64,000 nt of DNA. Source: Luteibaculum oceani (lineage in GTDB: Bacteria > Bacteroidota > Bacteroidia > Flavobacteriales_D > Luteibaculaceae). Made by a program: the position numbers and the translations under genes. The notes below the pieces were generated by a model that was not told the origin of the DNA, searched no databases, and saw only the letters and a list, made by a program, of their open reading frames with translations. Numbering within the stretch: the stretch's first letter is position 1; every line of letters starts with the position of its first letter. Shown here piece by piece: positions 1 to 15,433 of this stretch. The stretch is taken from assembly GCF_007995015.1 (NCBI RefSeq), contig NZ_VORB01000003.1, positions 1 to 64,000 of the forward strand, given 5' to 3'.

Positions 1-2280
1 CTTGAATACCACAGGCATCGTTTGAACCTCCATCGATATCTATCGGTTGAATAGAAGCCAAGCCTAAATGATCTAACTGTATCGTTATATCCTGACAAAT
101 TGCTACCGGTGGTACAGAATCCACCACGGTAACCTTAGCTTGACAACTGGATTGGTTTCCATTGTTATCCGTAACGGTTAAGGTAACCGTATTCGCTCCA
201 ACATCACCACAGCCAAACTGTGATTTGTCAATAGCTAAGCCATGAATACCACAGGCATCGTTTGAACCTCCATCAATATCTATCGGTTGGATAGATGCCA
301 ATCCTAAATGATCTAACTGTATCGTTACATCCTGACAAAGTGCTACCGGTGGTACAGAATCCACCACCGTAACTGTCGCTTGACAACTAGCTTGGTTTCC
401 ATTGTTATCCGTAACCGTTAGTGTCACCGTATTCGCTCCAACATCGCTACATCCGAACTGTGATTTATCGATCGCTAAGCCTTGAATACCACAGGCATCG
501 TTTGAGCCGCCATCTATGTCAGCTGCAACTATGGAAGCTGCTCCGTTCGCATCTAATTGAATCGTAATGTCTTTACATACAGCCACTGGTGCTACTGAAT
601 CGACTACTGTTACCGTCGCTTGACAGCTAGACTGATTTCCATTGTTATCCGTTACCGTAAGCGTAACGGTATTCGCTCCAACATCGCTACATCCGAACTG
701 TGATTTATCGATAGCCAGACCCTGGATACCACAAGCATCATTGGATCCGCCATCTACGTCTGCTGCAACAATGGAAGCTGCTCCGTTCGCATCTAACTGA
801 ATTGTGATGTCTTTACATACAGCCACTGGTGCTACTGAATCGACTACCGTCACCGTCGCTTGACAGCTAGACTGGTTTCCATTGTTATCCGTAACCGTTA
901 GTGTCACCGTATTCGATCCTACATCGCTACATCCAAACTGGAATTTGTCGATTGCCAGACCCTGGATACCACAAGCATCATTAGATCCGCCATCAATATC
1001 TGCTGCAACTATGGAAGCTGCTCCGTTCGCATCTAATTGAATTGTGATGTCTTTACATAAAGCCACTGGTGCTACAGAATCGACTACTGTTACCGTCGCT
1101 TGACAGCTAGACTGATTTCCGTTGTTATCCGTTACCGTAAGCGTAACCGTATTCGGTCCAACATCGCCACAACCAAACTGTGATTTGTCGATAGCCAGAC
1201 CCTGGATACCACAAGCATCATTTGATCCGCCATCTATGTCAGCTGCAACTATGGAAGCTGCTCCATTCGCATCTAATTGAATCGTAATGTCTTTACATAA
1301 AGCCACTGGTGCTACAGAATCGACTACTGTTACCGTCGCTTGACAGCTAGACTGATTTCCATTGTTATCCGTTACCGTAAGCGTAACGGTATTCGCTCCA
1401 ACATCACTACATCCGAACTGTGATTTGTCGATAGCTAAGCCATGAATACCACAGGCATCGTTTGAACCTCCATCAATATCTATCGGTTGAATAGAAGCCA
1501 AGCCTAAATGGTCTAACTGTATCGTAATATCCTGGCAAATAGCCACCGGTGGTACAGAATCCACCACCGTAACCGTCGCCTGACAGCTAGATTGGTTTCC
1601 ATTGTTATCCGTAACGGTTAAGGTAACCGTATTCGCTCCTACATCACTACAACCAAACTGTGATTTATCGATCGCTAAGCCTTGAATACCACAAGCATCG
1701 TTTGAGCCGCCGTCGATATCTGATGCAACTATTGAAGCAGCTCCGTTAGCATCTAATTGAATCGTAATGTCTTTACATACAGCCACCGGAGGAACGGAAT
1801 CTACCACGGTAACCGTTGCTTGACAGCTAGACTGGTTTCCGTTGTTATCCGTAACGGTTAAGGTAACCGTATTCGCTCCTACATCACTACAACCAAACTG
1901 TGATTTATCGATCGCTAAGCCCTGTATACCACAAGCGTCAATTGATCCGCCATCTACGTCTGCTGCAACTATGGAGGCTGCTCCGTTCGCATCTAATTGA
2001 ATCGTTATGTCTTTACATAAAGCCACTGGTGCTACAGAATCGACTACCGTCACTGTCGCTTGACAGCTGGATTGGTTTCCGTTGTTATCCGTTACCGTAA
2101 GCGTAACGGTATTCGCTCCAACATCACTACATCCGAACTGGGATTTGTCGATAGCCAGACCCTGGATACCACAAGCATCATTGGATCCGCCATCTACGTC
2201 TGCTGCAACTATGGAAGCTGCTCCGTTCGCATCTAATTGAATCGTTATGTCTTTACATACCGCTATCGGATCTACATTAT
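1..2280 (-). repeat. Tandem array of exact 240-bp repeats (80-residue HYR-like domains)
   Basis: Nine full units and half of a tenth are present, all in register at 240 bp (unit borders at 1, 241, 481 and so on to 2161), and the array continues past the left edge. Each codes for an 80-residue domain with conserved LTVTDNNGNQSSCQA and SNDACGI segments. Two subtypes alternate: type A carries ANGAAS plus VAADVDGG, type B carries HLGLAS plus IQPIDIDGG. Reading in the direction of translation from 2280 the order is A A A B A A A A B B. No unit has an indel. A more diverged unit at about 2281-2520 precedes the array. Confidence 0.95.
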
Positions 2281-5200
2281 CCTTAATTGTTACTGTTGCT
2301 TGGCATTGATCGGTTTCACTAGATGGGTCAGTAACTTTTAGCGTCACCACATGAGTACCAATTGGGTATGGACCTGGATTAAGCACTTGAATGGTGAAAT
2401 TATCACCATCTGGATCGTAGGAGCCTCCATCTATATCATTATATGTTACAATAGCCTGACAGTTACTATCTGTTCCAAGCAGTGCATTTTGACAAACCGC
2501 AACTGGAGGTTGATTACATTGATATGAAACTACATTGGTTTGTGCTTGTATAATACAATTATTGGAGTCGGTTAAAATTAAAGTAACCGTATAAGTTCCT
2601 TCATTTGAGTAACTATGAGAAGGACTGGATGCACTTGAACTGCCACCGTCTCCAAAATTCCAAGCATAGCTGTATGGAGTCACCCCACCGGAGGCAGAAG
2701 ATGAAAAGTGCATTGCCGAGTCGCCTAAACAAAAGGTGTCTTTTGCTGAAATATTAAGACTCAGCGCTGCGGGCTCGGATATGGTAAAATCTACATTAAC
2801 CGTGCAACCGAGTGAGTCACTAACAACATAGGTATAATCACCTGGACATAACCCGGAAGTAGGTTGGGAATTTGATCCAGCCGAAACCTTCCAATTGTCC
2901 GTCATATTACCTGGCGAATCGTGAATTGCTAATCCAACACTTAAATTGGATTCCGTAGAATAATTACTGGTATAGTAGGTTACGAAGTTGGCAGCACCCG
3001 CCTTTCGCACACGATAAATTGCACCACTCGCTTTAAGCTCAATTTCGCATTCATACCATGTATTTTTAGTATAGCCGCCTGGAATTTGACCTTCGAACCA
3101 AATTCTATGCGACCCATCTTCGTAAACTCCCAAATTATTATGAGCGAAGTAAATAGAGTGCGGTAGATTAAAATATCTATTTCCATTCGAATTATCTGGG
3201 CTGTACCAACCTATCATGGTGTGTCCACCTTTATGGTAATAGCTAAAGCTAAAGATTTTACCAGGCTCTCTTGAAAAGTTTTGTTGTGTAAAGAAGTACT
3301 TATTCCAGCCACCTCCATGACTAAAAACAAGTTCATTATTCTGTTGCGAATAGGTTCCGTAGGGATCTTTCACATACGCACTAGTATTTAAGTTTGAACC
3401 GGTAAAATCATCCTCAAATTCGGAGGGTGAGCTTAATTGATAAGGAGCTTTCCCTCCCGAAAAACTAAATGCAACTTCACCATCACAATCTCCATTACAT
3501 TTCACATCATTCACCACTGCGGTTGCGGTTAACTCAGGGTAAATCTCAATACTTTGAGCCCCCGTTTGTTCGCATCCCGTTGCATCTGTTCCGGTTACCT
3601 GCACCTGATAGCTTCCTTCATCTGAGTAGACGTTGGAAATTTCTTTACCAGTACCTGTATTTCCATCTCCAAAATCCCATGCATAGCTGTAATTAGCGCC
3701 AAGATAATTTTCATTGCTTGCAGCAACCCAGTCATCTCCAGGAACCATGTTTGTTAAAACAGCATCACTAATTAATGCTTGAATAGAACGAGTGGTAGTT
3801 CCAGAATTTTCACTAAAAGGAAAATAAGCTACAAGACCTGATTCGGATCCAGAGAGGGTTTCTTGAAATTCACTAGCAATTTCTGTTGCACTTTTTTGTT
3901 TATTCCAAATTCTTACCTCGTCAATAACTCCATCGAAATAATTGCAATTGCATCCATACCCTTGCTTCCCTATAAAAAGGCTATTCTGGTCTCCAGCATA
4001 GGTAGGTGCATTGGTAAAGGTTTTAGTCCCATCGGCTTGCCCGTTAATGTAGAAGGTCGCTTGACCATTGCTATAATCATAACTAACCGCCACATGGGTC
4101 CATTGATTTGTTGAAAAAGTTGAATTAGAGTATTGCCATTGCCCACCACTTGAAGTGTTTCCAAGGTAAAGAGCAAGTCTATTAGACTGATATTGGAAAA
4201 TATATACATCTGGATTAGTTCCTCCAGAACCGTGTCCTTTTGAAAAAATAGTTCTGCTTCCTCCACTATGTGGATAAATCCATGCTTCGAGAGTAAAATC
4301 ACCTGAAGGCACGTTGAGAACCGCATCATGGGGAACCTCGAGGTAATCATCTCCCCCATCGAAATCCAGTGCTGATGTGAAACCACCAGCAGATGCTGTA
4401 AATTGAATGCTATCTCCACCACAAGCCTCAATTTCGCTTTCAATATTTATTGAAAATGGGTCTTGCTCATTTACTGCAATTGCTCCGTTGGCCACACAGC
4501 CGTTTTCGTCAGAAACCGCCACGCTATACTTCCCTCTTCCTAATCCAGAAACAGTAGCCAAAGTATCTCCAGTACTCCACAGATACTCGTATTGAATAGA
4601 ATCGGCATGGACTGCTGTTACGGAAATTGTACCATCGTTTTCTCCATTACAAACAGCATCGCCCTGCAGCGCAATCTCGAACCCAAAATTGCTCGGTGCG
4701 GAAATAACAACTGTATCACTGGCCTGACAACCATTGCTATCTGTAACCGCTACGAAATAAGTTCCTGGTACCAAGCCCGAAATAGAATCTGTGGTTTCAA
4801 GTGTTGACCACTCGAACTCTAAAGGAAGTTTACCTCCTGTTACCTGCGCCTTGGCATTACCGTTGTTTGGGTTGGGACAAGTCGCATTATTAGCAATGAT
4901 CTCTACTTCTAAGACGGGAGCCTGAGTAAAACTCCAGCCCGTATTCCCTCCTTGGTCTGTAGAGTTTTCAGCAACAAAAGGTGAGTTGGCCCCAATGGCA
5001 GTAATATTTTTAATACTATTAAAAGCTACATTGGCCTCATTAAGAACCAAAAAGGCTGCAGACGTGCCATAAGAAGAAAGACTGGTAACCTGGCTACAGG
5101 TTCCTAAAGAATTAAGAGTGCCTATACTATCTACTGAATTGGCTCCTACGGTAAACGCCACGTTAGATCCGGAACCGACATTAAGGGTTGATATTTTGTT

Positions 5201-8200
5201 TGGACCTCCAAAAATGATGTAGTTACCATCGTTATTTTCAATACTAACCTTCTTAATGGAATAAAGTCCCTTACCTGTAAAGCCGGCATAATAATCTGGA
5301 CTTAAGATGATATGCGCCGAATCGGCATCTATAGGAAGGTTGCTTAAATCGGATTCCGAGTAGCTGCTTTTTAGGGTTATCTCAGATTCTCCCCAATCTA
5401 TTGCTCCACCATTGGCATCGCTTTGAATTATCAAGGCGCCCAATCCTAAATCAAAATCATCGGAATTAAAAAAACCTCTCTTTATCAACATTTGATTAGA
5501 AGCATCAAAGCGATTGGTAAGATTCCAGGTACCTGCTGGTGAAATCCCTCCTGGCCCCTCAAAATGAGCAATTTGCAGATCGTGACCGGCTGCATTTATT
5601 TTATGTTCTCCAGTAGTGCCTTTAAACACCCATTTAAAGGTAGAATCTATGGTCATGCTCGCCGTTAAGGTTAAGCTACCATGGATATCTATTGCCTTAC
5701 CGTTCATTTTGAAGGTGGGATGATAGAACGCACTAAGCCAATCCATGTCGAACACTTCCGGGGCGACTACATCGATATTTACAACTTGATTTGCTGAGCT
5801 AAACGAATTGGCATCGAAATAAACATTATCAAATTTTGAAGGGGGAACTAGATGTTTCTGAGTTCCTCCCGAACTATTTGCCCAGTGCGTAGTATCACTC
5901 CAATCTCCAGATCCACCTACCCAGTAATAACCGTCGCACGATTGAAAATTCCATCCTGTATTATTCCCCAGATCTTGACTAGATGCACCGGCATTGAAGG
6001 TGGCTGTACCATCTGCATTAATATCCTTAAGCCAGATGAAATCCATACAAATCAAACCATCTTCTTTATACAAAGTACCTTGACTTCCCGCCGTGGTGCT
6101 TTGTAAAAAGGCCGGGGCTCCCCCGGTTCCGAGCAACGTAAAATCTTCTACTGTTTGAGTTTTTCCCGATCCAATAAACAGTCGCGTTGCCTGCCCTGCA
6201 CCAGCGAAGTTTCCAAAACTATTATCCTCATTAAGGTAAATATACGGTCCAGCTGTTCCAGGAGAAAGAACCGTAAAAGAACCGAAATCATTGCTCCCAT
6301 TTACATTGATATTCGTAGTAGTACTTACGTTGTTATTGTTAACCTCTATTGCAAATGAATTGTACTTTCCATTGCCATTTATATGGATTTGGCGCTGGGC
6401 ACTGGGTTTAAAAACCACATCACCAAACTCATTATTATCGTGAATTTGTGTTTGGTAATTATTTCCACTGTTATTAGAAATAAAAGTAACATCGTCATAA
6501 GTATGGCCACCTCCATAGAAATAGGCATGGCTATTATTAATATCATCAATTACAATCTCAGAATTCGCCGAATTAATAGAAAAATTAGCACCTCCAACGC
6601 GCCACCATTCTTCAACATTTACTGTACTTCCAGAAATATCTATACTTCGAACATCATTGTAATTCGAGTAAAATTGGTGACTAAAGTGTGTGAACTGCCC
6701 GTTCACAACCAAATGTCCTCTTTGGAAATGGGTGGTGTAGCCGTATCTATGGCTGTAATCGAATGGACTTTGTAAAGTCCATGTAGCGGTTGGGCCTCCA
6801 TAAAAATGGGTATGGTAGTCGAATCCCACCCCATTCATATCAATTTCGTGATTACCGCTGCTGGCATAAAACCGAGTCCAGTGATGGTGAGCCCAATTAA
6901 CGCTCACGTCCACCTTAATAGAACCAAATAAATGCAACTCCCCACCGTGATTGTAATTACACGCATCATTAAGAACCATATCCCCATACACTTGCAAGGT
7001 TCTGTTTCCATTGAAATTGGGATTTTCAGTTGTTCCATTTACAATGAAGTTCTTACACTGCTTGGTGTTTCCTGTATAAAAAGTCACCGTGTTATCACCG
7101 GGGCTGAATGAGTTGGCATCAAAAATTACATTATCCTTTGCCTGTGGAATCACACACCCTGTTGGACTTCCTCCGGAGGTAAAAGACCAATGATTAACGT
7201 CGTCCCAATCTCCAGATCCACCTACCCAATACAGATTATAATTTGGAACGGGATTAATATTCCAACCTGTAACAGTTCCTGTTACGGTGGCATTCTGAGC
7301 ATTAAATATCGCTCCACCTGTTGCAGCGTGGTTGGTTAATTTTATGTAGTTCGCGTTTACTGTAAAGCCAGTATCTATGTTTAAAACTGAGCTGGTACTA
7401 GAACCATATATTTCAGATTCGTTGGTACAGCTATTGGCGGGAATTAAGGCCTTGGCATTTACCGTATGCCCGTTGGGAATTTCCATTCTTACCCCATCTA
7501 TGCGGATCGTATCGGCATTTAGGTTGTAGGCAAACCACCTCCAGGAGTAGAGGTGCCCATTACTTTTCATGGATATATTTTTCCATGTTCTTCCACTCTG
7601 GGTGTACACATATGTATGCGCTCCCCCCGCCTCTACATTCAGATTACCATAGGTATCTGATAAGTTACTTCCCCCATTAAAATGAAGCTGTCTATGTGTA
7701 TTAGAGCCCTGGGCCATAAATACATCTACATCCCCGAGGCTTTGATATTCGAGAAACCAAATCTGTCGCCATCCATGGTGGGGATAATCCATATCCATAT
7801 CAAAGTTACCCCAGGCCTTATGATTTCCCCGGAATCTAAAATCCTCATATTGCGGACTTTTGAAAATCACAAGGGGTTTATTTTGGGTTACGGAGGTGGA
7901 ACTCGTGTTACTGTAAAACTCTAGCCCTCGTCTCACAATGATGGTATCGGTACTATTGAAATCAAAATTGCATATACCACTAGTCCACGCATATAATTGA
8001 TATCCAAACTGATACTTGTTTCCTAGGAAATCGAAATTACCGCGATACACCTGGAAATTGTAATCGATATGGTGAACCATATTATCAAGAAAGGTCCATT
8101 TTGGAGAAGAGGTATTGTTGTTTCCTGGGTTGTTGAAATACATGTGCCCAAGGAAATTTTCAAAACCGTTAAACTTCAGCGTGTTATTGGTGCTATCGGA

Positions 8201-11200
8201 ATAGAAATAAATATTGTTGCTATGGTTCCAAACCAAGTTTGGATTAAACCTTAAAGACCCACGAATAGTTAAGTTGCTATTTTGATTGAATTGCATGGCA
8301 CCATCAATCAACAAACTACCATTAATGATTAAATTTTGATTTCCAGTTAATACTGGATTTCCCAATACGCCACTGGTCCAAATCATGGTTCCTACTTGTT
8401 CGTTTTGCTGATCGATATTTACAACTCCTCCCGTTGATGGAAAAGAATTGTGATCAAATATTACGGTGTCTAGTAGGGATGGTGGGCAAACTTGTGGACT
8501 TCCACCCGAGCTTAGCGACCAATGCGCTGCATCGCTAAAGTCTCCGGATCCACCTACCCAATACAGTTTATTTATGCTAAAACTACCTAGGTTAAACCCA
8601 GACACATTTCCTAAGTCCGCTGTATTGGTTGCTACAAAAGCATTTCCACCAACTCCATTAAGATCCTTTAAGTAGGCATAATCCACCTGAAATTTCGCCC
8701 CAGCCACCATGGAAAGTGTAGCGGCATTGCCACTCGAATTCCCCTGTATTGAAAGCGGTTTATCACACTGACCAATGGCAATAAGCGAGTCTGTAATGAT
8801 TTTGGTTTGGCCCGAGGCGAAATAAAGCTCGTGTCCCGCTGGGATAACAATGCTTTTTACCGTTCCGTAATACAAGTACGACTTTGTAACTATGTTGGAA
8901 AGGGCGTTATAATCGCCCATGGTTCTTGCATTAAAAACTACATGAGGTGTATACGAGGTGTTAGTTGTGGTGGAAATAAATTCTACGGGTCCAAAAAGTG
9001 CGTTCTGATTGCTTTGAGAAAGTCTTTGATTTCCCCAAAACTCGAATGTAGATTTCCCGAGTATGGTATCCTGATAGTTAATGTAAAAAGTGTGGGAAGA
9101 ACTGCTGTGTCGCATCTTAGAACTCAGACCGCCGTATGTATTCACCCCTCCATAAAAATAATTGTGGTCGGCTATGTTATTATCAAAGCTAACTACTGTG
9201 TTTGAGGCGGTTACCTTGGAACTATTACTTGGATACACCTCCCATCTACGATCTACAAATACCGAATCCGTTCCGGTTAAATCAAGATGATAATTGTACG
9301 CAGTACCGTTAACCCAACCGTGTAGTCGCCATCCGAAATATATTTGATGTCCATTCGATTTCAGCGTACCATTGAAAAACTGGGTTTCATGCCCATTCGC
9401 TGTTTTAAATTCATCTGCCAGTGTCCACAATCCTCCCTTACCATCAAAACGAACATGGCTACGCATTTGATGCCCAGCCATATCTATAACATTGTTAGAA
9501 TCTACCGCTTGAAAAGAAGTCCAATTATAATGATCCCACTGTACATCTGGATTTAAAATTAATGACCCATAGAGATACAGCCAACCGGTTTGGTTGTAGA
9601 TCATATCTCCATCAATTTTAAGGTCTTGGTTTACAGTAAGGTTGAATGAACCGTTAATTCTTGGATTACCTACCACCCCTGATTTCCAATGCATTGTAGC
9701 TACCTCGGCATGTAGGTTTACCGTTACGGTTTGCCCTGCAGCGGAAAAGGAATTAGCGTCGAAAATGGCATTATCATTAGCTTGAGGATAACAGGTTCCA
9801 TTTGGAGTTCCTCCACTACTGGTTGCCCAATGGTTTGGATCACTCCAGTTTCCGCTGCCTCCTACCCAATACAAATCGGTGGTTGATGAGTTTTGGAAGG
9901 TCCAATTACTATTACCACCTAAATCGACCGAACTATTCGCAACAAAAGAAGCCCCTCCAATACCATTTAGGTTTCTCAGCTTACACTGATCCACCTGACT
10001 TGTACCCGAAGCCATTGAAATATTTGCAATTCCATTGGAATTACTGGCAATTAAAGGAACGCTTGTACACCCACCTTGCCAATTTATGGACCCAATAGAT
10101 TGCGTTCTGTTTTGTTCGAGATAAACCTCTTTAAATCCAGGCTCTATATTAAAGGTGCCTATGCTGTTGTTCTGATATAAATAGCACAAGGTTCTAACAA
10201 CCCCGGCTGGATTTTTTAGGGTTAGGGTATTGATTGTTTTCCCATTATAGAAATTTGCATCCCCGTAATAATTGCCGGTTCCGTTATAAATCCACTCCAA
10301 TTCTACATCGTTGAAAGTGGTGTTTGAACCCTCGAATCGAATTCTTTGTTGAGATCCAAACTTGGCTTTAAAATCGTTGTAGGTATTGTTATTTCTTACG
10401 TAAAAGGTATGCCCCGTATTGTTAGTTGGCCAATTCACAAATACGTCGTGATAAGGTTTATTACCCCCATCGAAGTAAAAATGATCATGCACATTGGCAT
10501 TAAAATACAATACAGAACTCCCCATATCTATGGTGGAAGCTGTTCCTGTGTGCAACCGCCACCTGCGATCTACTTCAACCGTATCGCTTCCAGTGAAATC
10601 TAAATGAAAGTCGGCGTCTGAGTAAATTCCATACAAGCGCCATCCAAAATCTACCCTTTTACCTCCAGAATTAAATACCCCATGATGCACAAAAGTCTCG
10701 TAGCTAACTTCAAGTTTATCTTGTAGGGTCCACTCTCCCGTACCACGTAGGTACAAGCGATATAGTTTTACCCCGTTGGTTTTTATGGTATTTCCGTTTC
10801 CAGCACCGTCTAAGTATAAAAAATTGGCCTGCCAGGTAATGTTGGCAATGTCCATGGATCCCTTTAGGAAAACATCATTTGGATCAAAGGACTGGGGACC
10901 TGTGGTTGGATTGATTATCAAATCGCCATCCACGTGTAGATTACCATTACCTATCCACCGTACAACTCCGTTAATGTTAAGATTTACACCCACAGTGGTA
11001 ATCTTATTGTTGGTATGGAAATACGGATTAAGACTCCCGAGAGTAGATGACCATGTCATGTTCGCACAAAAGGCATCAACATCTAGTGTAACCTGTTGAT
11101 TAGGTGCACTGAAGGAGTTCCCATCGAAATGCACATTATCATTCGGGCTAGGCACCTGATTATGAAATACCGATCCACCCGAGGAAGTAGCCCAATGGTT

Positions 11201-11344
11201 CGCGAAATCCGACCAATTTCCAGAGCCGTTCACCCAATAGTAATCGACCCCAAAAAGAGAAGAGGGAATTATGAAAAAGATGAAAATTGAAATCGCCTTC
11301 CAGTAATTGGATAAGCGAGCCCACTGTGAAATTGAAACCACCAT
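1..11344 (-). CDS. Giant modular cell-surface adhesin (SprB/PKD/LamG/HYR-like), C-terminus beyond left edge
   Basis: A reading frame opens at the ATG at 11344 and I followed the same frame at many points to base 1, so at least 3,781 codons are present and the gene is partial. Residues 1-32 look like a signal peptide (hydrophobic ISIFIFFIIPSSLFG). Five modules follow, each starting with Y-W-V-x-G-S-G-[DN]-[WF]-x-D near residues 35, 492, 928, 1372 and 1807 and ending with a TGW motif. Then come two SprB repeats (about 2142-2302), a PKD domain split by a LamG domain (about 2305-2595), a SprB repeat split by a second jelly-roll-like domain (about 2600-2858), a complete PKD domain (about 2862-2941), one diverged HYR-like unit and at least nine near-identical 80-residue HYR-like units. 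Proteins of this build in gliding Bacteroidota are exported by T9SS and act as surface adhesins. The expected sorting domain is outside the window, so export route and adhesion are inferred. I did not translate every codon, so an internal stop is unlikely but not excluded. Confidence 0.85.
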   Translation of the reverse strand, partial: MVVSISQWARLSNYWKAISIFIFFIIPSSLFGVDYYWVNGSGNWSDFANHWATSSGGSVFHNQVPSPNDNVHFDGNSFSAPNQQVTLDVDAFCANMTWSSTLGSLNPYFHTNNKITTVGVNLNINGVVRWIGNGNLHVDGDLIINPTTGPQSFDPNDVFLKGSMDIANITWQANFLYLDGAGNGNTIKTNGVKLYRLYLRGTGEWTLQDKLEVSYETFVHHGVFNSGGKRVDFGWRLYGIYSDADFHLDFTGSDTVEVDRRWRLHTGTASTIDMGSSVLYFNANVHDHFYFDGGNKPYHDVFVNWPTNNTGHTFYVRNNNTYNDFKAKFGSQQRIRFEGSNTTFNDVELEWIYNGTGNYYGDANFYNGKTINTLTLKNPAGVVRTLCYLYQNNSIGTFNIEPGFKEVYLEQNRTQSIGSINWQGGCTSVPLIASNSNGIANISMASGTSQVDQCKLRNLNGIGGASFVANSSVDLGGNSNWTFQNSSTTDLYWVGGSGNWSDPNHWATSSGGTPNGTCYPQANDNAIFDANSFSAAGQTVTVNLHAEVATMHWKSGVVGNPRINGSFNLTVNQDLKIDGDMIYNQTGWLYLYGSLILNPDVQWDHYNWTSFQAVDSNNVIDMAGHQMRSHVRFDGKGGLWTLADEFKTANGHETQFFNGTLKSNGHQIYFGWRLHGWVNGTAYNYHLDLTGTDSVFVDRRWEVYPSNSSKVTASNTVVSFDNNIADHNYFYGGVNTYGGLSSKMRHSSSSHTFYINYQDTILGKSTFEFWGNQRLSQSNQNALFGPVEFISTTTNTSYTPHVVFNARTMGDYNALSNIVTKSYLYYGTVKSIVIPAGHELYFASGQTKIITDSLIAIGQCDKPLSIQGNSSGNAATLSMVAGAKFQVDYAYLKDLNGVGGNAFVATNTADLGNVSGFNLGSFSINKLYWVGGSGDFSDAAHWSLSSGGSPQVCPPSLLDTVIFDHNSFPSTGGVVNIDQQNEQVGTMIWTSGVLGNPVLTGNQNLIINGSLLIDGAMQFNQNSNLTIRGSLRFNPNLVWNHSNNIYFYSDSTNNTLKFNGFENFLGHMYFNNPGNNNTSSPKWTFLDNMVHHIDYNFQVYRGNFDFLGNKYQFGYQLYAWTSGICNFDFNSTDTIIVRRGLEFYSNTSSTSVTQNKPLVIFKSPQYEDFRFRGNHKAWGNFDMDMDYPHHGWRQIWFLEYQSLGDVDVFMAQGSNTHRQLHFNGGSNLSDTYGNLNVEAGGAHTYVYTQSGRTWKNISMKSNGHLYSWRWFAYNLNADTIRIDGVRMEIPNGHTVNAKALIPANSCTNESEIYGSSTSSVLNIDTGFTVNANYIKLTNHAATGGAIFNAQNATVTGTVTGWNINPVPNYNLYWVGGSGDWDDVNHWSFTSGGSPTGCVIPQAKDNVIFDANSFSPGDNTVTFYTGNTKQCKNFIVNGTTENPNFNGNRTLQVYGDMVLNDACNYNHGGELHLFGSIKVDVSVNWAHHHWTRFYASSGNHEIDMNGVGFDYHTHFYGGPTATWTLQSPFDYSHRYGYTTHFQRGHLVVNGQFTHFSHQFYSNYNDVRSIDISGSTVNVEEWWRVGGANFSINSANSEIVIDDINNSHAYFYGGGHTYDDVTFISNNSGNNYQTQIHDNNEFGDVVFKPSAQRQIHINGNGKYNSFAIEVNNNNVSTTTNINVNGSNDFGSFTVLSPGTAGPYIYLNEDNSFGNFAGAGQATRLFIGSGKTQTVEDFTLLGTGGAPAFLQSTTAGSQGTLYKEDGLICMDFIWLKDINADGTATFNAGASSQDLGNNTGWNFQSCDGYYWVGGSGDWSDTTHWANSSGGTQKHLVPPSKFDNVYFDANSFSSANQVVNIDVVAPEVFDMDWLSAFYHPTFKMNGKAIDIHGSLTLTASMTIDSTFKWVFKGTTGEHKINAAGHDLQIAHFEGPGGISPAGTWNLTNRFDASNQMLIKRGFFNSDDFDLGLGALIIQSDANGGAIDWGESEITLKSSYSESDLSNLPIDADSAHIILSPDYYAGFTGKGLYSIKKVSIENNDGNYIIFGGPNKISTLNVGSGSNVAFTVGANSVDSIGTLNSLGTCSQVTSLSSYGTSAAFLVLNEANVAFNSIKNITAIGANSPFVAENSTDQGGNTGWSFTQAPVLEVEIIANNATCPNPNNGNAKAQVTGGKLPLEFEWSTLETTDSISGLVPGTYFVAVTDSNGCQASDTVVISAPSNFGFEIALQGDAVCNGENDGTISVTAVHADSIQYEYLWSTGDTLATVSGLGRGKYSVAVSDENGCVANGAIAVNEQDPFSINIESEIEACGGDSIQFTASAGGFTSALDFDGGDDYLEVPHDAVLNVPSGDFTLEAWIYPHSGGSRTIFSKGHGSGGTNPDVYIFQYQSNRLALYLGNTSSGGQWQYSNSTFSTNQWTHVAVSYDYSNGQATFYINGQADGTKTFTNAPTYAGDQNSLFIGKQGYGCNCNYFDGVIDEVRIWNKQKSATEIASEFQETLSGSESGLVAYFPFSENSGTTTRSIQALISDAVLTNMVPGDDWVAASNENYLGANYSYAWDFGDGNTGTGKEISNVYSDEGSYQVQVTGTDATGCEQTGAQSIEIYPELTATAVVNDVKCNGDCDGEVAFSFSGGKAPYQLSSPSEFEDDFTGSNLNTSAYVKDPYGTYSQQNNELVFSHGGGWNKYFFTQQNFSREPGKIFSFSYYHKGGHTMIGWYSPDNSNGNRYFNLPHSIYFAHNNLGVYEDGSHRIWFEGQIPGGYTKNTWYECEIELKASGAIYRVRKAGAANFVTYYTSNYSTESNLSVGLAIHDSPGNMTDNWKVSAGSNSQPTSGLCPGDYTYVVSDSLGCTVNVDFTISEPAALSLNISAKDTFCLGDSAMHFSSSASGGVTPYSYAWNFGDGGSSSASSPSHSYSNEGTYTVTLILTDSNNCIIQAQTNVVSYQCNQPPVAVCQNALLGTDSNCQAIVTYNDIDGGSYDPDGDNFTIQVLNPGPYPIGTHVVTLKVTDPSSETDQCQATVTIKDNVDPIAVCKDITIQLDANGAASIVAADVDGGSNDACGIQGLAIDKSQFGCSDVGANTVTLTVTDNNGNQSSCQATVTVVDSVAPVALCKDITIQLDANGAASIVAADVDGGSIDACGIQGLAIDKSQFGCSDVGANTVTLTVTDNNGNQSSCQATVTVVDSVPPVAVCKDITIQLDANGAASIVASDIDGGSNDACGIQGLAIDKSQFGCSDVGANTVTLTVTDNNGNQSSCQATVTVVDSVPPVAICQDITIQLDHLGLASIQPIDIDGGSNDACGIHGLAIDKSQFGCSDVGANTVTLTVTDNNGNQSSCQATVTVVDSVAPVALCKDITIQLDANGAASIVAADIDGGSNDACGIQGLAIDKSQFGCGDVGPNTVTLTVTDNNGNQSSCQATVTVVDSVAPVALCKDITIQLDANGAASIVAADIDGGSNDACGIQGLAIDKFQFGCSDVGSNTVTLTVTDNNGNQSSCQATVTVVDSVAPVAVCKDITIQLDANGAASIVAADVDGGSNDACGIQGLAIDKSQFGCSDVGANTVTLTVTDNNGNQSSCQATVTVVDSVAPVAVCKDITIQLDANGAASIVAADIDGGSNDACGIQGLAIDKSQFGCSDVGANTVTLTVTDNNGNQASCQATVTVVDSVPPVALCQDVTIQLDHLGLASIQPIDIDGGSNDACGIHGLAIDKSQFGCGDVGANTVTLTVTDNNGNQSSCQAKVTVVDSVPPVAICQDITIQLDHLGLASIQPIDIDGGSNDACGIQ
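4925..11245 (-). repeat. Five tandem ~1.3-kb protein modules beginning with YWVGGSG
   Basis: Within the giant adhesin the motif Y-W-V-[GN]-G-S-G-[DN]-[WF]-x-D recurs with its first Tyr codon at 11242, 9871, 8563, 7231 and 5926, which gives spacings of 457, 436, 444 and 435 codons. After each motif come an HWA..SGG segment, a DNV.FD.NSFS segment and then a long stretch of short beta-strand-like repeats rich in His, Asn and Gly, which suggests a parallel beta-helix or similar solenoid. Each module closes with a TGW motif just before the next YW. The copies have diverged at the DNA level, unlike the 240-bp array. The fold is inferred from repeat character only. Confidence 0.8.
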
Positions 11345-11372: not shown

Positions 11373-12341
11373 TTACAGGCTGCGGGTAAAAAACAACTGC
11401 TTTATTACTCCAACCTTTAATTTTTTTCTGTATCTGTTGTAGTTAGCGCTCCAGAGGATTTCCCCCGGCTGGTATGCCCTTACTATTATGGTTCCTTGGG
11501 TAGGGTCTATTTGTAAATCAATTCCAGGTTCAGAAATCAAATCATTTGAATCTCCATAAACAGAGTATGGTGGAGCTGAAATAGGAAAATCATGTTTGTT
11601 TTCTGCCGCCGTGTAATTTGCTACATGTGCATCTAGGGTTGCGGTGGCAGCATCTAGCTGATTTCTGGTTGAGAAAAGTTCTCCCTTACCCGATAGCAAT
11701 AGAGAATCCATTGGGTTAGAACTTAAATTGGGATATGGATAACTAATTTCTTTGTTGGAACAAACCTGTAGAGGATAGAAATCTGAGGAAAATTGAAATG
11801 CCCGAGAAGGTAAATAGTCGTCGATGACGAATGTTAAACTAACCCCTTCAACCCGAAAAGGAGAACTTGGGGTCATCCCATCCAAGGTCGACTGCCATAC
11901 GGCGATGTATCCTCCGGGTATTTTGGCTAAATCAACATCACCAGAGTATTTCACTCTTTTGTAGCAGGGGAGGCTGGCTATTTGATCGCATTCAGCTGGA
12001 TTTGCCAAGTTTACGGTTTCCTCAAACTCCTTGATAAGCTCCACATCCACCTTCGGATATCCTACCGACTCAAAAACAGCACAACCCATTTTCTCGAGAG
12101 ATACAGGCTGTCCGCAGGGTACAATTAATTCCAGAGAAATCTTGTGACTTTTAATTTCTCCCTCAGTGGCCCACAAAACTGCACTTGACCAGTGCTGTTC
12201 GGTTTCGGAATTGTCAACATTGCTAGGTACCACATTTTGCTGAGCCAATAAGGAACTCAAACAGCAAAACGCAAGAAAGAGAAAGCGTACAACACAAGAT
12301 GTTGCCAGCTGAATGGATTTTGTGAGGAACTTACAACCCAT
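11373..12341 (-). CDS. Secreted protein resembling the N-terminal region of PKD-type surface proteins
   Basis: I start this 322-residue protein at the ATG at 12341 (MGCKFLTKSIQ); a GTG two codons upstream is the alternative. Residues 1-35 form a signal peptide ending near SLLAQQ. The order of features recalls the N-terminal half of large T9SS surface proteins of Bacteroidota: an ITLK-like segment (HKISLELIVPCG), an 'IAVWQ' strand, a CSNKEISYPYP segment in the place where those proteins have an 'ICAN' segment, then PPYSVYGDS, an IDPTQGTIIV segment and a closing 'YRKKLKVG'. Here the protein stops at that point, with no PKD array and no sorting domain. It ends 28 bp before the giant adhesin starts, so the two are probably co-transcribed and it may work with the adhesin at the cell surface. 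Function is unknown. Confidence 0.75.
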   Translation of the reverse strand: MGCKFLTKSIQLATSCVVRFLFLAFCCLSSLLAQQNVVPSNVDNSETEQHWSSAVLWATEGEIKSHKISLELIVPCGQPVSLEKMGCAVFESVGYPKVDVELIKEFEETVNLANPAECDQIASLPCYKRVKYSGDVDLAKIPGGYIAVWQSTLDGMTPSSPFRVEGVSLTFVIDDYLPSRAFQFSSDFYPLQVCSNKEISYPYPNLSSNPMDSLLLSGKGELFSTRNQLDAATATLDAHVANYTAAENKHDFPISAPPYSVYGDSNDLISEPGIDLQIDPTQGTIIVRAYQPGEILWSANYNRYRKKLKVGVIKQLFFTRSL

Positions 12342-12689
12342 AATCACTAAAGTTTTTAATTGTTACGGGTGCTTCAACGACTGGAGTAGGAAATAAAGAA
12401 CCTAACTAAATGCTTATGAGCGTTTGTGGATTAAGTATTTTCATTTAAAGACTTGTAACTACCATTGATAGAACAAAACTGAGTGAAACCTCTCCGTAAA
12501 AACCCATTTATTTGAATGGTATGCATTATTTAGTACAATCAAACACAGGTTCAAGCTAGGCCAAGCCCGTCATTCTTAAAAAATTGTTAAACAAGGTCAC
12601 CGCAGTTTATGCCCATAATCATTTGTGTTACATCTTCGATGAAGGGTAAAAAATCTCAGATAAGGGATTAGTTGAATGACTCAGAACTA
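12342..12689. other. Divergent intergenic region without a recognisable gene
   Basis: About 350 bp separate the divergently transcribed secreted protein (minus) and CIA30 protein (plus). It must hold both promoters. I searched both strands for TAnnTTTG with an upstream TTG and found no convincing match. No ORF of note, tRNA or strong hairpin is visible. Confidence 0.5.
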
Positions 12690-13594: not shown

Positions 13595-15433
13595 ATGAAA
13601 AAATTATTACTTGCTTTTAGTCTGCTGCTTGGCACAACTACCGCATTCGCAGACCACCTAAGCGAAAGACTGCTATTTACAGCGCGCTTAGACGGAGAAA
13701 ATAATACAACCGTAACCAATCCTGATGCTAACGGAATAGCTTCTTTGTTTCTAAACAAGAATAGAGATTCTTTATTTGTAACAATCGCAACGGGTAACTT
13801 GGGTGGAGCCATTACAGGGGCTCATATCCACGAGGGAATGCCAGGAGTTGATGGTGGAGTAGTTTTTAACCTTACGCCATTCGTTAACCAAAACATGATT
13901 AAAACTGTAATTACCGGAGGTGATTTAGACAGTTTAATGGAGGGTTTATTTACCGAGGCATATTACATCAACATCCATACTGAAAACCCAATTGCAACAG
14001 GAACTGCAAGGGGGCAAATAAAACTGGAGCGCGACTTTGGTTTCTACACCAACTTAGACACCGCACAAGAAATTCCTTCACCAATGGGTTCTGCAGCATT
14101 GGGCTCAGGAAACTTTATCATCGACCAAAATGATGATAGTATCCGCGTTGCTATAATAACAACAGGTTTAACGGGAGACATTCAGGGCGCTCATTTACAC
14201 TTTGCTGCCGCAGGTGAGAACGGACCAGTACTCGTAAATCTTTCTAGTCTTATCAAAGGAGGCACTCGAATTTACGGTAAAGTTGCTGTTCCAGACTCTT
14301 TAAAGGGTGGAAAACTTAAAAACTACATTAAAGACGGACTGATTTACGCAAACATCCACACCACAATGAATGCTGCGGGTGAAATACGTGGACAAGCTTT
14401 AGTAAGCTCAGACCTATATTTAGACTCAAGATTAGATCAAGCGCAATTAGAAACGCCTCAAACCGTACAAACTGATGTGCAGGCTGCTGGTCATGGATAC
14501 ATCGCAAGCGATTTTGCTTCTTTCAGATATTACTTTGTGTACGAAGAAGAAAACCTTTCTTCTCAAACACCAATTTTCAGCTTTGTTAGAGGCGGACAAA
14601 TTGTTAAAAGCCTACAAGCTCAAGACGGAGTAATTGCTGGATCTTGGACTTCAGAAGATGTTACGCAACCACTTACCGAAGACTTAATAAGAGGCTTATT
14701 GTACGGTGAAGTATCGCTAAGAATCTCAACCACGCTTAATCCTACAGGTGAATTACAAGGAACTTTGATTCGTGCGTTGCGCGAGGGCTATGCTTACGAG
14801 CTAAACACGGAGCAAGAAGTTCCTAGTCCTATGGTTACTAAAACTCCTATGGGTGCGGGTATGGTATCAATAGATAGCCGTAGAAGTAACGCTCATGTAA
14901 TGCTTGCATTTGATAGCCTTTCTGGTCCAGCTACTGGAGGCCACTTGCACCTTGGTGTTCCTGGAGAAACAGGTCCTGTACTTTTTGCATTGCCAGTAAT
15001 AGATAATGCGGCTTATACTTTTTGGACTGCAGATGCTGGATTTACTGCCGCAAATGAGCTTCAATTTAGAAGAGATTCGGTTTATGTAAATATCCACACT
15101 ATGGCTAATATGTCTGGAGAAATTAGAGGTAATGCAGACCGCGATTATAGAAACAACCAGAGCACTACAAGCATATCTAGCTTTAGCAAAGATCTGGATG
15201 TTGCCATTTCTCCAAATCCATTTGCAGACTTTATCAATATTGAAATAAATGGATCACAGCAAGCTGAAAAAGCTGTTATCCAAGACTTATCTGGAAAGGT
15301 AGTCCTCACCACAGAACTAAGTACCAACGGGGTTAAAAGCCAAATTATAACCACCGACATTAAACCAGGTGTATATATCCTGAGTTTATACAAAAACGGT
15401 TCAGTTTTGGCAGCTAGTAAAATAGTTAAGTAA
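13595..15433 (+). CDS. Secreted protein with four CHRD domains and a T9SS type A sorting tail
   Basis: The 612-residue product has a signal peptide (MKKLLLAFSLLLGTTTAFA), then four consecutive CHRD (chordin-type) domains starting at about residues 21, 147, 275 and 396. CHRD hallmarks are visible: GAHIHEG and NIHTENP in the first, GAHLHFA and NIHTTMN in the second, GGHLHLG and NIHTMAN in the fourth. The third is degenerate: the G-x-H-x-H motif is replaced by FSFVRGGQ and 'NIHT' by 'RISTT'. The last ~80 residues (from DVAISPNPF through GVYILSLYKNG to the basic end) form a type A sorting domain, which directs T9SS export and attachment or release at the cell surface. The role of bacterial CHRD domains is poorly known. 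A terminator follows the stop. Confidence 0.93.
   Translation: MKKLLLAFSLLLGTTTAFADHLSERLLFTARLDGENNTTVTNPDANGIASLFLNKNRDSLFVTIATGNLGGAITGAHIHEGMPGVDGGVVFNLTPFVNQNMIKTVITGGDLDSLMEGLFTEAYYINIHTENPIATGTARGQIKLERDFGFYTNLDTAQEIPSPMGSAALGSGNFIIDQNDDSIRVAIITTGLTGDIQGAHLHFAAAGENGPVLVNLSSLIKGGTRIYGKVAVPDSLKGGKLKNYIKDGLIYANIHTTMNAAGEIRGQALVSSDLYLDSRLDQAQLETPQTVQTDVQAAGHGYIASDFASFRYYFVYEEENLSSQTPIFSFVRGGQIVKSLQAQDGVIAGSWTSEDVTQPLTEDLIRGLLYGEVSLRISTTLNPTGELQGTLIRALREGYAYELNTEQEVPSPMVTKTPMGAGMVSIDSRRSNAHVMLAFDSLSGPATGGHLHLGVPGETGPVLFALPVIDNAAYTFWTADAGFTAANELQFRRDSVYVNIHTMANMSGEIRGNADRDYRNNQSTTSISSFSKDLDVAISPNPFADFINIEINGSQQAEKAVIQDLSGKVVLTTELSTNGVKSQIITTDIKPGVYILSLYKNGSVLAASKIVK

What the first reader, a model, noticed from the sequence alone, without database searches (positions are those of the whole stretch)
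2770..3550. A second jelly-roll domain inserted inside a SprB repeat
The next domain repeats the trick: a SprB repeat starts with VKCNGDCDGEVAFSFSGGKAPYQ, is interrupted by ~190 residues that open with FEDDFTGSNLNTSAYV and close with NMTDNWKVSAG (a concanavalin-like pattern), and then finishes as a SprB repeat with SGLCPGDYTYVVSDSLGC. Two unrelated host domains, PKD and SprB, both carry jelly-roll inserts directly after a Gly-Gly turn. This points to a general insertion site for ligand-binding domains in these stalks.
Basis: partly seen in the sequence, partly recalled or inferred. Interest (0 to 1): 0.6.

Follow-up and report, generated by a model that had tools for sequence, protein, structure and literature searches.

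The report
Orphan domain nested in SprB repeat
A giant secreted surface protein of a Bacteroidota bacterium has one of its small stalk repeats interrupted by an unknown 190-residue domain, and related bacteria plug known sugar-binding domains into the same kind of repeat, so such interruptions can be used to find new sticky (adhesive) modules.

Summary
In the 3,781-residue minus-strand ORF (window 2-11344), residues 2605-2860 are one SprB repeat whose N-half (window 3532-3437) and C-half (2860-2765) are separated by about 192 residues. In 82 of 84 half-pairs in the same genome the gap is 5-21 residues. AlphaFold2 gives both halves pLDDT about 95, and VIA-align matches them jointly (model 1..255, 74 residues aligned) to a single FN3/Ig-like sandwich.

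The insert is an orphan: no match in Pfam, NCBIfam, PHROGs or PDB sequences, and none credible in about 1,000 genomes. Its "concanavalin-like" fold is unproven. The neighbouring PKD is split by a genuine Laminin_G_3 domain.

Split repeats recur in the order. SprB repeats also carry C-type-lectin, DUF4082-like and unannotated inserts; Ig_7-type repeats carry LamG, C-type lectin and a SUEL lectin. Sites differ (BC, CD, FG loops), so there is no single insertion site after Gly-Gly, and this SprB insert begins about 7 residues or more after GG.

Best explanation: a ligand-binding module carried sideways by a split Ig-like repeat, as in RTX adhesins, here in a probable T9SS type A protein. It is a new variant of a known kind. 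Binding is untested.

The parts
2..11344 (-). Giant surface-protein ORF (3,781 aa, P0001), cut by the start of the contig; start codon at 11344
4688..4912 (-). Intact SprB repeat 1 (res 2145-2219)
   Evidence: own SprB HMM 71.7 bits
4454..4687 (-). Intact SprB repeat 2 (res 2220-2297)
   Evidence: own SprB HMM 55.2 bits; Pfam SprB best stretch 2229-2261
4382..4453 (-). N-half of the split PKD (res 2298-2321, ...QFTASAGG)
   Evidence: joining the halves raises PKD_4 from 47.0 to 60.8 bits
3701..4381 (-). LamG insert in the BC loop of the PKD (res 2322-2548)
   Evidence: Pfam Laminin_G_3 E 3.8e-34
3533..3700 (-). C-half of the split PKD (res 2549-2604, YSYAWDFGDG...)
   Evidence: Pfam PKD_4 profile 32-80
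3437..3532 (-). N-half of the split SprB repeat (res 2605-2636, ends GGKAPYQ)
   Evidence: Pfam SprB E 7.5e-6; AF2 pLDDT 94-96
2861..3436 (-). Orphan inserted domain of about 190 aa (res 2637-2828); boundaries uncertain by up to about 12 residues at either end
   Evidence: no family match, no PDB sequence match, no credible relatives; beta-rich in the AF2 model, low confidence
2765..2860 (-). C-half of the split SprB repeat (res 2829-2860, SGLCPGDYTYVVSDSLGC...)
   Evidence: own half HMM 36.0 bits; AF2 pLDDT 94-96 for the last 26 residues and 83 for the block before
2522..2764 (-). Intact PKD domain (res 2861-2941)
   Evidence: Pfam PKD_4 2868-2937
2..2521 (-). HYR repeat array running off the contig end
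   Evidence: Pfam HYR, 10 stretches
4913..11344 (-). N-terminal signal-like segment and repeated 'YWVGGSGNWSDxxHWATSSGG' modules
   Evidence: read from the translation; no Pfam match listed there

Best explanation
Residues 2605-2860 are one SprB (Ig-like beta-sandwich) stalk repeat that serves as a 'split domain'. The chain folds the first strands of the repeat, leaves around its C strand to build a separate domain of about 190 residues, and returns to finish the repeat. The inserted domain therefore buds sideways from the stalk with both ends anchored, and most likely acts as a ligand-binding (probably glycan-binding) module of a very large secreted surface adhesin. The neighbouring PKD carries a LamG domain in the same manner. 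Shown: the split, the co-folding of the halves by prediction, and recurrence of split hosts carrying recognised lectin-type domains in related genomes. Inferred: that this particular insert is a compact beta-sandwich, that it projects sideways, and that it binds a ligand. The protein is probably a T9SS type A substrate, because a second contig end that continues the HYR array ends in a type A sorting domain.
For: Split. Co-folding: AF2 with 29 intact SprB rows gives pLDDT 94-96 in most of both halves; VIA-align aligns 74 residues spanning model 1..255 to one FN3 domain (7y8i_B, Z 8.2, rmsd 2.5), with other FN3/Ig-like chains below. Same architecture with recognised binding domains: SprB + Lectin_C (L129, E 1.4e-6), Ig_7-type + SUEL_Lectin (L050, 9.8e-11), Ig_7-type + Laminin_G_3 (L091, 1.1e-27); Ig_7-type + Lectin_C (L112, 5.8e-12); LamG nested in Ig_7-type repeats in L112, L113, L117, L124, L127; SprB + DUF4082-like (L073) and two SprB + unannotated inserts (L040). 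[quoted passage not shown] Probable T9SS route: G000:C14 continues the HYR array and ends in TIGR04183.
Against: The insert has no recognisable family, so binding is inferred from position only. Sideways projection was not measured. Z about 8 lies in the range that common folds can reach. Some inserts elsewhere (L040, L073) are not known lectins. The join between contigs C3 and C14 is an inference.
Confidence: 0.62

Rival explanations
1. The insert is a structural or spacer element (a branch, bumper or protease shield) without ligand binding; splitting is tolerated drift because loops of Ig-like repeats accept insertions.
For: No family match; loops at several different sites accept inserts; some inserts elsewhere are of unknown function (L040).
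Against: Where nested inserts in this order are recognisable, they are mostly binding-type domains: Lectin_C, SUEL_Lectin, Laminin_G_3.
Confidence: 0.2
2. The insert is an enzyme domain (for example a glycanase or lyase with a concanavalin-like fold) held on the stalk, rather than an adhesin module.
Against: No match to any enzyme family in Pfam, NCBIfam or PDB sequences; no catalytic motif was recognised.
Confidence: 0.08
3. Not a split repeat: two truncated SprB repeats happen to flank an ordinary tandem domain.
For: SprB and PKD repeats are modular and degenerate copies exist; several wide-gap pairs in the survey were degenerate neighbours.
Against: The halves are complementary with almost no overlap of the profile (N-half 1-24; C-half 3-31 of a separate half model), join into one full-length match and are predicted to fold as one domain. 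A search for complementary halves found 3 pairs with the SprB profile and 2 with the Ig_7 profile, against no outward-truncated pair.
Confidence: 0.05
4. Assembly artefact: the insert was joined into the repeat wrongly.
For: The gene is repetitive and its contig breaks in the HYR array.
Against: Uninterrupted frame, G+C 0.396 against 0.401 for the window and 0.422 for the gene, no repeats at the junctions that would cause misjoining, same architecture in independent genomes.
Confidence: 0.03

Closest known systems
[quoted passage not shown]
   Same: An Ig-like repeat of a long stalk is interrupted by a domain and completed after it; in the RTX cases the insert is a sugar-binding module projected from the axis (PMC10865825, PMC12077191).
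   Different: Those are type I secreted RTX adhesins. Here the hosts are SprB, PKD and Ig_7-type repeats of a Bacteroidota protein with a probable T9SS type A signal, the insert is a family without known members, and binding is untested.
SprB repeat (PF13573), as in the SprB gliding adhesin
   Same: N-half matches the Pfam model and the C-half matches the rest of the repeat; intact SprB repeats lie just upstream.
   Different: Split by about 192 residues. The sorting signal on the probable C-terminal contig is type A, whereas SprB itself has a type B signal (PMC12618676).
RemA, the mobile lectin of Flavobacterium johnsoniae
   Same: T9SS type A surface adhesin containing a lectin domain (PMC12618676).
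   Different: The insert here has no lectin family match. Whether RemA's lectin is nested in a repeat was not examined.
Laminin_G_3 (PF13385) domain in the neighbouring PKD
   Same: Also an insert of about 200 residues in an Ig-like repeat of the same protein.
   Different: It is recognised by Pfam (E 3.8e-34); the SprB insert is not, and no relation between the two inserts was detected.

Membership tests
SprB repeat (PF13573) | N-terminal half motif (C..G...G....v.GG..PY) | tested here: met
   Pfam E 7.5e-6, profile 1-29 of 37 in the split form (25.9 bits, just under the cut-off of 28); 29.6 bits when joined
SprB repeat (PF13573) | C-terminal half (L.pG.Y.v.v.D..GC) | tested here: met
   half HMM 36.0 bits
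SprB repeat (PF13573) | Continuous repeat with a loop of a few residues between the halves | tested here: not met
   192-residue gap against 5-21 in 82 of 84 half-pairs
Split domain carrying a ligand-binding module (RTX adhesin type) | Ig-like host interrupted and completed around an insert | tested here: met
Split domain carrying a ligand-binding module (RTX adhesin type) | Insert projects away from the stalk axis with its termini adjacent | tested here: inconclusive
Split domain carrying a ligand-binding module (RTX adhesin type) | Insert binds a ligand | not testable with these tools
   needs binding assays
Split domain carrying a ligand-binding module (RTX adhesin type) | Type I secretion with RTX repeats | tested here: not met
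   Pfam shows HYR/PKD/SprB domains and no RTX match; T9SS type A domain on the probable C-terminal contig
Concanavalin-like / Laminin_G_3 (for the SprB insert) | Sequence profile match | tested here: not met
   no Pfam, NCBIfam or PHROGs match for the insert
Concanavalin-like / Laminin_G_3 (for the SprB insert) | Jelly-roll fold | tested here: inconclusive
   AF2 pLDDT about 45 in the insert
Laminin_G_3 (for the PKD insert) | Sequence profile match | tested here: met
   E 3.8e-34, profile 1-151 of 151
T9SS type A substrate | TIGR04183/PF18962 C-terminal sorting domain | tested here: inconclusive
   present on contig C14 (E 1.1e-7 and 2.6e-10), which probably, not certainly, continues this gene

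The most novel reading that the evidence does not exclude
The orphan insert is the first known member of a new ligand-binding domain family, and Ig-like stalk repeats of Bacteroidota T9SS proteins (SprB, PKD, Ig_7) are a general plug-in platform in which interruption of a repeat marks a binding module.
Probability: 0.4. Interest if true: 0.62.

Novelty: new variant of a known kind. Interest (0 to 1): 0.47.

Why it matters
T9SS stalk proteins of Bacteroidota are thousands of residues long, and which parts actually bind is mostly unknown. If an interrupted stalk repeat marks a binding module, as proposed for RTX adhesins, repeat length alone becomes a cheap screen for new lectins, including families with no sequence relatives such as this one. 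It also suggests how new specificities are acquired: by inserting into loops of the stalk without breaking it.

Tried and rejected
Relatives of the insert: none credible. L010 and L011 are chance matches to beta-propeller-like proteins, and L159 is an unrelated protein. GTDB pattern scan with the insert found nothing; plasmids and phages nothing. Degenerate tandem repeats that mimic wide gaps (L072, L074, the 601-aa ORF of L073) were read and excluded. HMMs for PKD and Ig_7 drifted into SprB on iteration, so they are not independent families here. Alignments of half-repeat fragments meant to give an unbiased test of BC against CD placement were misaligned and not used. Foldseek with the whole model gave nothing useful because the insert is unreliable. 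A regex search for other 'DDF...DNxKV' jelly-roll-like domains gave one unrelated hit. No target-site duplication and no base-composition anomaly at the junctions. Literature searches found no description of split SprB or PKD repeats in Bacteroidota; the library is not complete. Whole genome was not available as a file.

Full report
What is there. The finding lies in a minus-strand ORF of 3,781 codons (window 11344 down to 2) that runs off the start of its contig. From N to C terminus the protein has a signal-like start, a long region with repeated 'YWVGGSGNWSDxxHWATSSGG' modules, two intact SprB repeats, a PKD split by a Laminin_G_3 domain, the split SprB repeat of the finding, an intact PKD, and an array of HYR repeats.

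The split repeat. Residues 2605-2636 carry the first half of a SprB repeat and 2829-2860 the second half, about 190 residues apart. Pfam's short SprB model covers only the first half of the repeat and matches it with E 7.5e-6. With half-repeat models built from the repeats of this genome, 82 of 84 N/C half-pairs are 5-21 residues apart, one 96 and this one 192. In a survey of 717 half-pairs from this and related genomes, 709 gaps are 25 or less. Joining the halves in silico gives a single full-length match of 72 bits, against 40.8 and 25.3 bits for two partial matches with the insert in place.

Do the halves fold together? AlphaFold2 on residues 2605-2860, with 29 intact SprB repeats as alignment rows, gives pLDDT 94-96 for most of both halves. 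VIA-align, which can leave out long unreliable stretches, aligns 74 residues spanning model positions 1 to 255 with one fibronectin type III domain (7y8i_B, Z 8.2, rmsd 2.5), followed by other FN3/Ig-like chains. Two cautions: the alignment rows were intact repeats, which favours this outcome, and Z near 8 shows a common sandwich rather than a close relative.

The insert. It has no match in Pfam, NCBIfam or PHROGs or PDB sequences, is unique in its genome, and has no credible relative in genome searches totalling about 1,000 genomes of the order and phylum, some searched more than once, in a pattern scan of GTDB species genomes, or in plasmids and phages. The model shows many short strands but is unreliable there (pLDDT about 45). 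So 'concanavalin-like' remains a guess, whereas the insert in the neighbouring PKD is a true Laminin_G_3 domain (E 3.8e-34). G+C is ordinary and there are no repeats at the junctions, so nothing suggests a recent mobile insertion.

Is it general? Yes, in a modest way. Among about 930 SprB-type half-pairs surveyed, five have a foreign insert: the one here, two in L040 (about 175 residues, no Pfam match), one in L073 (140 residues, weakly DUF4082-like) and one in L129 (C-type lectin, E 1.4e-6). Ig_7-type repeats carry a SUEL lectin in L050 (9.8e-11), LamG in L091 (1.1e-27), a C-type lectin in L112 (5.8e-12), and LamG in L112, L113, L117, L124 and L127. Of 84 LamG domains in the fetched ORFs, at least nine appear to sit in a BC loop of a PKD or Ig_7-type repeat (this window included), and two or three in L112 appear to sit in an FG loop; these last assignments rest on reading the flanks. 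L113 and L117 are related, so these are not all independent events. Hosts lie in several families of the order. There is thus a general habit, with at least three loops used, and not one insertion site.

How it probably works. [quoted passage not shown] The same anatomy here suggests that the insert is a binding module carried sideways on the stalk. This is an inference from position and from the recognised inserts in related proteins; binding itself is untested.

Secretion. The HYR array continues on the end of another contig, G000:C14, whose frame ends in a T9SS type A sorting domain (TIGR04183 E 1.1e-7; Por_Secre_tail 2.6e-10). That C14 is the missing end of this gene is probable but not shown. 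Type A signals in Flavobacterium johnsoniae lead to static anchoring or release rather than to the gliding machinery (PMC12618676), so this protein is more likely a fixed or shed adhesin than a gliding adhesin like SprB.

Verdict. Real feature; new variant of a known kind. The novelty lies in the Bacteroidota hosts (SprB, PKD and Ig_7-type repeats, probable T9SS) and in an insert with no known relatives. The literature library held no description of this arrangement in Bacteroidota, but it is incomplete.

Noticed in passing
L160 (G000:C14) 1-2870: Contig end with HYR repeats about 90% identical to the window's first bases, then an Ig-like repeat, a weakly Bactofilin-like stretch, a run of aspartates and a T9SS type A sorting domain; probably the missing C-terminus of the gene at window 2-11344.
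   Followed up: partly
L112 (ORF of 1,634 aa, G052:C29): One protein with several nested modules: LamG and a C-type lectin in BC loops of Ig_7-type repeats and LamG apparently in FG loops; a strong example of the architecture.
   Followed up: partly
L040 (G034:C13, ORF of 1,492 aa): Two consecutive SprB repeats each split by related inserts of about 175 residues without a Pfam match ('NPLIISGVVDGPLSGGTPKAVELYA'); they look lamin-tail-like by eye only.
   Followed up: partly
G023:C2 around 78319 (L110): Open frame of 24,946 aa containing a LamG domain, reported by the LamG search.
   Followed up: no
window 13595-15433: Protein with three CHRD domains and a T9SS C-terminal sorting domain.
   Followed up: no
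window 11373-12347: 324-aa ORF just upstream of the giant gene on the same strand, no Pfam match.
   Followed up: no
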